Shown here piece by piece: positions 48,118 through 50,460 of a stretch of 64,000 nt of DNA; the first letter of the stretch is position 1; every line of letters starts with the position of its first letter. Source of the DNA: Solirubrobacterales bacterium (GTDB lineage: Bacteria; Actinomycetota; Thermoleophilia; Solirubrobacterales; 70-9). The DNA lies in NCBI GenBank assembly GCA_023958085.1, contig JAMLGI010000003.1:124001-188000 (forward strand), written 5' to 3'. The notes beneath the pieces were generated by a model. The model was not told where the DNA came from and did no database searches. It worked only from the letters and a program-made list of their open reading frames with translations. Both the position numbers and the translations under genes were made by a program.

Positions 48118-50460
48118 TCAGCGGGTGAGCGAGGAGGCCGACTCGCGACTCTTGCGCCGACTGCGCGGATACGGGTCGAGCTCCACCGGGGCGGTGGCGA
48201 TCGCCTGGGCGCGGACATCGCTCCAGGAAAGGCCTTCACGGACCAGGGCCGGAACGCCTAGGGCAGCCGCGGTCGCCATCTCGACCGCCTGCAGGATCAC
48301 CCCGTAGGCGAAGGCGTCGGCCGTGGAGATACCCCAGCCCTTGTGGAGCACGGCGACGACGGCAAGTTGGAACACGCCGATGTTCGACGGCGTCACCGGC
48401 ACCGCGGCGGTGAAGTTCACCGCGAAAAGGACCGCGGCCGAAGCAGCGAAACCGGCCAGGTGATCCAGCCCCAGGGCGAACATCAGGGCCCAGCAGGAGA
48501 GCAGCTGGATCGCCCACGCGGTGAACTGGAGCAGCACCGCCGGGATTCCGTTTCGGGGATGGCGGAACACGGTCAGACCGCGTCGCACCTGAAGCATCAC
48601 CCCGTGCATCGCGTCGGCGAACCGGGCCAGCCTGCCTTCCCCTCCACCCCTGCTTCTGAGCAGCGACGGGGTGACCACAACGGCGACCAGGAGCAGCGGG
48701 GGAATCAGGCTGAACAGCAGGACCTGCCTGGTCGAGTTGTTCTGGAACAGCCCGTCGAAACTCGACAGCACGATCACCGCCAGGACGACCAGGGCAAGAA
48801 TGTTGAACATCGTCTGCGACACGATCGTCCCGATGATCACCGGCAGGGACTCCTTGGCCCGACCGGTGTGACGGGCGAGGCTGAGGGCACGAGCCGGCTC
48901 CCCCATGCGGGCCGGCAGCGTGGCGGACATCAGCACCCCGATCATCGTCGCTGAAGCGAAGTCCCGTTGTCTCAACTTCGAGCCGGGCAGCGCCGACCGG
49001 GCGATCAGCTGCCAGGACCCGGCCCGCACAAAGAGCGATGCGGCCATCAGCACCAGGGCGACCAGGACCCAGGAGAGGTCGGAACGGACGATCGCGGCAG
49101 CGACCTGGTCGACGCCGATCTTGCGGGCGGCGATCACCGAGAGGCCGACTCCGGCCAGGCCGACCGCCCCCATGGCCAGCTTGCGGGCGATCGTCCGACG
49201 GCCCCTCATGGCCCGGACCGGTTCCGGATCGAGCGAGGGCAGCCGGACCGGCGGCTCCGGCGGAAATCCGTCGCTGGTGACCACGCCGAGCCGTCGGCTG
49301 ATCCGTTCCGTGGCGTCGGCCGGGGCGGGAACCTCGATCGCCCGTTCATAGACCCTGGTCACCTGGTCCGCGACCGTCTCCCACGCGTACCGGCGGGAAC
49401 TCTCACGGGCATTGGCGGCCATGCGACTCAGCTGATTCGGTTCGTGGTGGGCTCGCTGCAGCTCCTCGGCAAGCGCCTGCGGATCACCGGGAGGAACCAG
49501 CACACCATCCACCCGATCGGTGACCACGTCCGAGTAGCCGGCGATTCCCGAGGCGATCACCGGAGTGCCCGCGGCGAACGCTTCGGTCAGAACCATGCCG
49601 AAACTCTCACCGGAGAGCGACGGGGCGCAGAGCACATCGGCCTCGGCCAGATGGCGCCACAGTTCCGGCTCGGTGACCCTGCCGTGAAGATCGAGATGCT
49701 GTTCAAGCTCGGGGTGGGCGAGGATCCGCCGGACGTCCTCCGGATCGGCACCGACCACGGCGAGCCGGGCCGGCACGTGATCGACCAGGGCGTCGAAGGC
49801 GCGAAGCAGGACGGGCAGGCCCTTGCGTTCGTCGGGCCTGCCGACAAAGAGCGCCCGCAGGTGGTCGGCGTCGGTCGCCGCGATCTGCGGGGCCGCGTTC
49901 ACGTCGACCCCGTTGGGGATGATTGTGTAGTTCCCGCCGTACCAGCGGCGGCCGGTCCAGGCGGCCGCCTCGGACACCGCGATCCGGGCGGAGAGGCGGT
50001 TCAGCGTTCGCTGTGCACCGGCCATCCGGGCGAGAAGGTGCGGCAACGGCCTGGTCGAGTAGGCGTGGAAGGTTCCCACCACGGGGACCTCGCTCGAGAG
50101 GCAGGTGTCCCAGCCGTTGAGTGGGGTGGTCGGCTCGTGGAGGTGAACCACGTCGAAACCGCCCTCCGCGATCGCCCTGCGGGTGCGTTCGATCGTTTCG
50201 GGAAACATCGGGATGTTGGAGATCGACCCGTTTGCGCCGATCCCGACCGTCCGCCCGACCGGGATCACGTAGTCGGGCATCTCCACCTCTTCGGCGGGAG
50301 CACGGTGAAGCACCTTCGAGAGGCGATCGGCGGGATCGAATGGGGCGATGACACGGACGTAGTGGCCCCGGTCCATGAACTCCGAGGCCAGCGACTGGAC
50401 GTGCCGATTCACTCCACCCTGATAACTCCACGAATAAGGGGTGACGAGGGCTATTCGCAC
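48118..50460 (-). CDS. PimA-like GT4 mannosyltransferase fused to LPG-synthase-type membrane (flippase-like) domain
   Basis: 780 residues from GTG 50460 (V-R-I-A-L-V-T-P-Y). Residues 1-385 form a GT4 glycosyltransferase in the PimA mould: YQGGVNRHVQSLASEF, MPDYVIPVGRTVGIGANGSI, TFHAYSTRPLPH, and the GT4 nucleotide-sugar motif GESFGMVLTEAFAAGTPVI. After a linker, residues about 440-760 hold eight or so helices with VRAGSWQLIARSALPG and ATLPARMGEPARALSLAR, typical of the PF03706 LPG_synthase_TM/UPF0104 family. A frame open to 51018 is not used. TATGCT lies 9 bases before the GTG. Confidence 0.85.
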   Translation of the reverse strand: MRIALVTPYSWSYQGGVNRHVQSLASEFMDRGHYVRVIAPFDPADRLSKVLHRAPAEEVEMPDYVIPVGRTVGIGANGSISNIPMFPETIERTRRAIAEGGFDVVHLHEPTTPLNGWDTCLSSEVPVVGTFHAYSTRPLPHLLARMAGAQRTLNRLSARIAVSEAAAWTGRRWYGGNYTIIPNGVDVNAAPQIAATDADHLRALFVGRPDERKGLPVLLRAFDALVDHVPARLAVVGADPEDVRRILAHPELEQHLDLHGRVTEPELWRHLAEADVLCAPSLSGESFGMVLTEAFAAGTPVIASGIAGYSDVVTDRVDGVLVPPGDPQALAEELQRAHHEPNQLSRMAANARESSRRYAWETVADQVTRVYERAIEVPAPADATERISRRLGVVTSDGFPPEPPVRLPSLDPEPVRAMRGRRTIARKLAMGAVGLAGVGLSVIAARKIGVDQVAAAIVRSDLSWVLVALVLMAASLFVRAGSWQLIARSALPGSKLRQRDFASATMIGVLMSATLPARMGEPARALSLARHTGRAKESLPVIIGTIVSQTMFNILALVVLAVIVLSSFDGLFQNNSTRQVLLFSLIPPLLLVAVVVTPSLLRSRGGGEGRLARFADAMHGVMLQVRRGLTVFRHPRNGIPAVLLQFTAWAIQLLSCWALMFALGLDHLAGFAASAAVLFAVNFTAAVPVTPSNIGVFQLAVVAVLHKGWGISTADAFAYGVILQAVEMATAAALGVPALVREGLSWSDVRAQAIATAPVELDPYPRSRRKSRESASSLTR

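What the first reader, a model, noticed from the sequence alone, without database searches (positions are those of the whole stretch)
48118..50460. PimA-like mannosyltransferase fused to a flippase-like membrane domain
Seen: one 780-residue frame with a complete PimA-like GT4 domain and an eight-helix PF03706 domain. Known: PimA adds mannose to phosphatidylinositol on the cytoplasmic face; PF03706 proteins include lipid flippases. Inferred: the product glycolipid is handed directly to the membrane domain.
Basis: partly seen in the sequence, partly recalled or inferred. Interest (0 to 1): 0.6.

Follow-up and report, generated by a model that had tools for sequence, protein, structure and literature searches.

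The report
PimA-like sugar transferase fused to flippase-like domain
A bacterium of the order Solirubrobacterales carries one long protein that joins an enzyme resembling the one which starts mannose-lipid synthesis in mycobacteria to a membrane domain resembling lipid flippases; related bacteria carry the same two parts as neighbouring genes, so the two parts very probably work together.

Summary
The fusion is real, but the gene lies on the minus strand (50460 to 48118, GTG start, 780 aa). Residues 1-376 are a GT4 domain whose nearest solved relative is mycobacterial PimA; residues ~420-755 are a PF03706 domain with the MprF membrane fold. It is not an assembly frameshift: 48 of 60 related genomes hold it full length, and it was found only in Solirubrobacterales. 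Other Thermoleophilia carry the halves as adjacent genes, usually with a 4-base stop/start overlap (24 of 28 pairs in one order), sometimes with a polysaccharide deacetylase between. Trees of the two halves agree. In all 9 fusion-bearing genomes tested, the GT half is by far the best PimA match. Solirubrobacter deserti, which carries the fusion, is reported to make PI mannosides, though that paper contradicts itself. Against a simple 'PimA' label: positions 18, 62, 68, conserved in operon PimA, are changed. Most likely: a glycolipid synthase-translocase that works like MprF, GpgS/GpgF or HexS/HexF. Lipid, sugar and flipping are inferred; direct hand-over is untested. New variant of a known kind.

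The parts
48118..50460 (-). whole gene, 780 codons plus TGA, GTG start
49333..50460 (-). GT4 (PimA-like) domain, residues 1-376
49204..49332 (-). linker, residues 377-419, variable in sequence and of low model confidence around 410-420
48193..49203 (-). PF03706 membrane domain with MprF-like fold, residues 420-755 (Pfam match 434-735)
48118..48192 (-). C-terminal tail and stop, residues 757-780; the tail is variable apart from the conserved APVxL around 757-761

Best explanation
A two-domain glycolipid synthase-translocase. The N-terminal GT4 domain, on the cytoplasmic face, transfers a sugar from a nucleotide sugar to a membrane lipid; the best single guess is GDP-mannose to phosphatidylinositol, as in PimA. 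The C-terminal PF03706 domain then moves the glycolipid across the membrane, as the flippase part of MprF does for lysyl-phosphatidylglycerol. Shown here: domain composition, conservation as one gene, adjacent split versions, matching trees, folds, catalytic residues kept in the window protein. Inferred from the families: lipid acceptor and translocation. Weakest steps: identity of lipid and sugar, and direct hand-over.
For: PimA fold and sequence, Z 40.4 against 35.7 for the best non-PimA row. MprF fold of the membrane half, Z 15.9-18.0 against 5.7 for the next row. Positions 16, 118, 196, 201, 202, 274 and 282 of PimA kept in the window protein. Fusion in 48 of 60 relatives. Split pairs: 28 of 30 loci in one order, 24 of 25 in another (10 direct, 14 with a deacetylase homologue between). 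Mirror trees, r 0.917 on 41 pairs. The GT half is the best PimA match in 9 of 9 fusion-bearing genomes. S. deserti, a carrier, is listed with PI and PIM (PMC10722151, passages). Split analogues GpgS/GpgF and HexS/HexF make glycolipids.
Against: PimA positions 18, 62 and 68 are changed in nearly all fusions and 123 is variable; position 196 is Gln in 5 of 16 fusion rows. The gene has no lipid-related neighbours: MFS, alpha/beta hydrolase, oxidoreductase, glutaredoxin in the window; methionine synthase and chlorite dismutase are common in relatives. The S. deserti species description omits PI and PIM. HexSD without HexF still gives product, and a gpgF mutant still contains GlcN-PG, though less. 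7 of 60 relatives lack the gene.
Confidence: 0.55

Rival explanations
1. Same architecture, but the acceptor is another lipid (phosphatidylglycerol, diacylglycerol or a polyprenyl phosphate) and the sugar is not mannose, as in GpgS/GpgF and HexS/HexF.
For: Positions conserved in operon PimA are changed. Sister systems have a deacetylase between or fused, which points to N-acetylhexosamine there. GpgS is a GT4 that acts on PG (PMC12713373, passages).
Against: The fusion is the best PimA match of its genomes; no deacetylase like that of L253 in the window or in the 80 named loci of the order; S. deserti is listed with PIM.
Confidence: 0.35
2. The membrane half is only an anchor or acceptor-binding platform for the GT and does not move lipid.
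For: HexF and GpgF are not needed for the lipid to be made; no direct flipping assay for a GT-linked member was seen in the passages read.
Against: Fold match to MprF with strongly conserved polar residues in the membrane half; in the passages of PMC5898192 the N-terminal MprF domain is said to be required for translocation.
Confidence: 0.25
3. Two separate genes joined by an assembly error.
For: None found; halves that lie apart in G037 and G025 are at contig ends.
Against: Many independent assemblies, cultured isolates included, have the same single frame.
Confidence: 0.01

Closest known systems
PimA (GDP-mannose:PI mannosyltransferase, GT4)
   Same: GT-B fold, 36-40% identity over the GT half, catalytic and donor positions kept
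   Different: PimA is a single-domain enzyme whose gene, in the actinomycete genomes looked at, lies downstream of a CDP-alcohol transferase gene; here a membrane domain is fused, the neighbours differ and positions 18, 62, 68 are changed
MprF (lysyl-PG synthase and flippase)
   Same: One polypeptide that joins a lipid-modifying enzyme to this membrane fold
   Different: MprF modifies with an aminoacyl group, by a C-terminal synthase domain that is absent here; order of domains reversed
GpgSDF (P. aeruginosa) and HexSDF (C. difficile)
   Same: Glycosyltransferase plus UPF0104/MprF-like predicted flippase (PMC12713373, PMC10128005, passages)
   Different: Separate genes with a deacetylase; known products are GlcN-PG and an aminohexosyl-hexosyl lipid
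AglD (Haloferax)
   Same: Cytoplasmic N-terminal GT fused to a C-terminal UPF0104/PF03706 domain, proposed flippase (PMC5898192, passages)
   Different: GT2 family (recalled), archaeal N-glycosylation of the S-layer protein

Membership tests
PimA | GT4, GT-B fold with PimA as nearest relative | tested here: met
PimA | catalytic and donor positions 16, 118, 196, 201, 202, 274, 282 (roles recalled) | tested here: met
   all seven in the window protein; 196 is Gln in 5 of 16 fusion rows
PimA | positions 18 (Q), 62 (Y), 68 (R), 123 (K/R) as in PimA encoded downstream of a CDP-alcohol transferase (acceptor role recalled) | tested here: not met
   window has N, A, N, R; operon PimA rows have Q 4 of 5, Y 4 of 5, R 5 of 5, K/R 5 of 5
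PimA | gene beside PI-synthase-type CDP-alcohol transferase | tested here: not met
   that gene lies in another locus
PimA | transfers mannose to PI | not testable with these tools
   needs an enzyme assay
PF03706 / flippase-like domain | Pfam and NCBIfam cut-offs passed | tested here: met
   112.6 bits against 33.4; TIGR00374 43.9 against 43.2
MprF | membrane fold of MprF | tested here: met
   Z 15.9-18.0 for six entries, next row 5.7; Foldseek E-values weak
MprF | C-terminal aminoacyl-PG synthase domain | tested here: not met
   no such Pfam domain in the window protein or in the 36 members
GpgSDF / HexSDF-type cassette | deacetylase gene with the pair | tested here: not met
   none like that of L253 in the window; present in sister orders
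AglD | GT2 catalytic domain (recalled) | tested here: not met
   GT4 families only

The most novel reading that the evidence does not exclude
Thermoleophilia hold a modular glycolipid export cassette of three parts (PimA-like GT4, N-deacetylase, PF03706 translocase) that occurs as GT | translocase, GT | deacetylase | translocase, GT | deacetylase-translocase fusion and, in Solirubrobacterales, as the GT-translocase fusion of the window, which makes and exports PI mannoside in one protein. PF03706 proteins would then be candidates for the flippase of PI mannosides that is still unknown in mycobacteria.
Probability: 0.3. Interest if true: 0.7.

Novelty: new variant of a known kind. Interest (0 to 1): 0.5.

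Why it matters
The step that carries PI mannosides across the mycobacterial membrane is assigned to an unknown flippase (PMC12041525 and PMC3229680, passages). A natural fusion of the best PimA relative to a flippase-fold domain, with split pairs in sister orders, names a protein family to test and offers a single polypeptide in which synthesis and transfer between leaflets can be measured. Synthase-flippase fusions (MprF) and GT-UPF0104 fusions (AglD) were known; a PimA-like GT4 fused to this domain did not appear in two literature searches.

Tried and rejected
Frameshift or misassembly: rejected. True split inside the order: G037 and G025 looked split, but their halves run into contig ends. 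A second PimA in the PI locus: the GT4-PHP protein there has lost PimA positions 202, 274 and 282, and nearly always 16 and 196, in 7 of 7 Solirubrobacterales rows looked at, so it is an unlikely rival. Co-occurrence with Ino1: uninformative, because Ino1 is in nearly all genomes, with or without the pair (57 of 61, 53 of 61, 18 of 19). Deep branching order of the GT clades: not resolved (quick method, no bootstrap). Domain interface: pTM 0.73, linker blocks at pLDDT 54-66, no inter-domain error returned, so not judged. Membrane-half profile against PDB sequences: only a chance match, so kinship with MprF rests on Pfam and fold. The mirror correlation is inflated by species kinship.

Rows dropped: of 42 loci with a hit, alignment A1 holds the window and 35 loci; left out were L001 (the window itself), L006 and L011 (to save room), L013 and L055 (match runs over a stop), L045 and L046 (contig ends). 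Of the matches only the 30 best loci per call were scored for neighbours, plus longer stretches: eight lie in genomes, eight lie in genomes. The GT and membrane trees use chosen rows, 62 and 54. No viral or metagenome collection was searched, and nothing outside Actinomycetota apart from the named control genomes, the PDB and the 80 loci.

Full report
What is there. The feature is one gene on the minus strand, 50460 to 48118, starting with GTG and ending with TGA, 780 codons. Pfam finds both GT4 sub-domains and, from residue 434 to 735, PF03706. NCBIfam gives the flippase-like domain TIGR00374 at 43.9 bits, just over its cut-off of 43.2, and no glycosyltransferase equivalog over its cut-off among the 25 rows shown of 36. 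PimA is the best solved relative of the GT half by sequence (E about 2e-57).

It is a conserved fusion. Among 60 relatives searched, 48 hold a match running from residue 1-2 to at least 762; three of the genus run off contig ends after both halves have begun (G005, G015, G016); two (G025, G037) have the halves at the ends of two contigs; seven have none (G020 and G030 of one genus; G039, G042, G045, G048, G051 of another family of the order). A few of the 48 rows count one in-frame stop, as matches run past the gene's end. In the 296-genome sample of the phylum the full fusion occurs only in the own order; elsewhere the best listed match is a GT half alone. Named carriers include Solirubrobacter, Conexibacter, Patulibacter, Paraconexibacter and Svornostia, so the window comes from a Solirubrobacterales genome. 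The 36-row alignment has invariant residues throughout both halves.

Split homologues are neighbours. With the membrane half as query, I took the 30 best loci of one other order of the class: 28 have a PimA-like GT gene directly upstream on the same strand; of the two others, one starts at a contig edge (L200) and one has none (L219). In 24 of these 28 pairs the start codon nearest to the GT stop overlaps it by four bases (a mechanical choice of start). In a second order, 24 of 25 loci have the GT upstream: 10 directly and 14 with one gene between. That gene is a polysaccharide deacetylase in the two scanned with Pfam (L253, L254), and all 14 have a homologue of it. In genomes of families f9 and f73 the deacetylase is fused to the membrane domain behind the GT (Pfam for L262; L260 and L261 by similarity). 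In a third order none of 30 loci has the GT within the flank and 27 of 30 have the deacetylase; eight longer stretches also showed no GT. Trees of the two halves give the same groups (fusion, the two related split groups, the deacetylase groups), and distances correlate at 0.917 over 41 pairs; kinship of the species inflates that number.

Folds. The full model (pLDDT 83.7, pTM 0.73) matches PimA best (2gej, Z 40.4, 349 residues, rmsd 2.5, 37% identity; best non-PimA row Z 35.7). The membrane half alone (pLDDT 86.0) matches six MprF entries at Z 15.9-18.0, the next row at 5.7; Foldseek put MprF entries first too, but with no E-value under 0.001. The linker is of low confidence, so nothing can be said about an interface.

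Is it PimA? M. smegmatis PimA as query finds the fusion first in all nine fusion-bearing genomes searched (168-202 bits, next at most 83), and only 70-80 bits in the three fusion-less Solirubrobacterales searched. In the three genomes of sister orders in that search, the pair GT is the best match in two (G089, G293) and the second in one (G169). The window protein keeps the seven catalytic or donor positions looked at. But positions 18, 62 and 68, conserved in PimA genes that lie downstream of a CDP-alcohol transferase, differ, and 123 is variable among fusions; their role in binding PI is recalled, not looked up, since the key paper was not held. Genes for inositol-phosphate synthase and a CDP-alcohol transferase lie together elsewhere in these genomes, followed by a GT4-PHP protein with a ruined active site. 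In the own genome that locus is cut by contig ends on C14 and C12. Solirubrobacter deserti CPCC 204708 carries the fusion, and every other hit in its genome is under 80 bits; its describing paper lists PI and PIM in section 3.4 but omits both in the species description (PMC10722151, passages).

How it most likely works. The GT4 domain on the cytoplasmic face glycosylates a membrane lipid, and the PF03706 domain moves the product outward. The logic is that of MprF, and of GpgSDF and HexSDF, where the flippase step is predicted and not proven (PMC12713373; PMC10128005; passages). Makarova and colleagues had already proposed flippase activity for the whole family, with AglD as a GT fusion and a GT/deacetylase/UPF0104 neighbourhood in archaea (PMC5898192, passages). 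So the principle is known; the PimA-like fused form and its modular variants in Thermoleophilia are the new part. Two literature searches found no account of it; the library lacks most subscription papers.

Verdict. Observation confirmed with a strand correction; interpretation partly supported; new variant of a known kind. Lipid identity, translocation and direct hand-over remain inference.

Noticed in passing
L047:1862-3799 (-), L042:5435-7555 (-), own genome L040:5029-7056 (-): A GT4-PHP fusion protein lies next to inositol-phosphate synthase and a CDP-alcohol transferase; its GT4 half has lost most catalytic positions in 7 of 7 Solirubrobacterales rows. A dead GT kept in the PI locus is unexplained.
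   Followed up: partly
L262:3032-4963 (+); by similarity L260, L261: Polysaccharide deacetylase fused to a PF03706 domain, directly behind a PimA-like GT gene.
   Followed up: partly
L225-L235, L237-L252; examples L295, L298, L300, L301, L302: In a third order the deacetylase precedes the PF03706 gene in 27 of 30 loci without a PimA-like GT; in L298 the two look fused in one frame; a LytR-CpsA-Psr gene lies nearby in 5 of 5 looked at.
   Followed up: partly
L158:6753-9838 (-): A PAP2-GT4 open frame with a PF03706 gene at its upstream end.
   Followed up: no
L051:1384-3420 (also L082): A second GT copy without membrane half, about 90% identical in DNA to the fusion copy next to it, ending in a scaffold gap (unknown residues); probably an assembly artefact.
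   Followed up: yes
G000:C7:44871-45341 and G000:C29:3174-3644: Two CDP-alcohol transferase matches with the same score in the own genome, perhaps a duplicated contig stretch.
   Followed up: no
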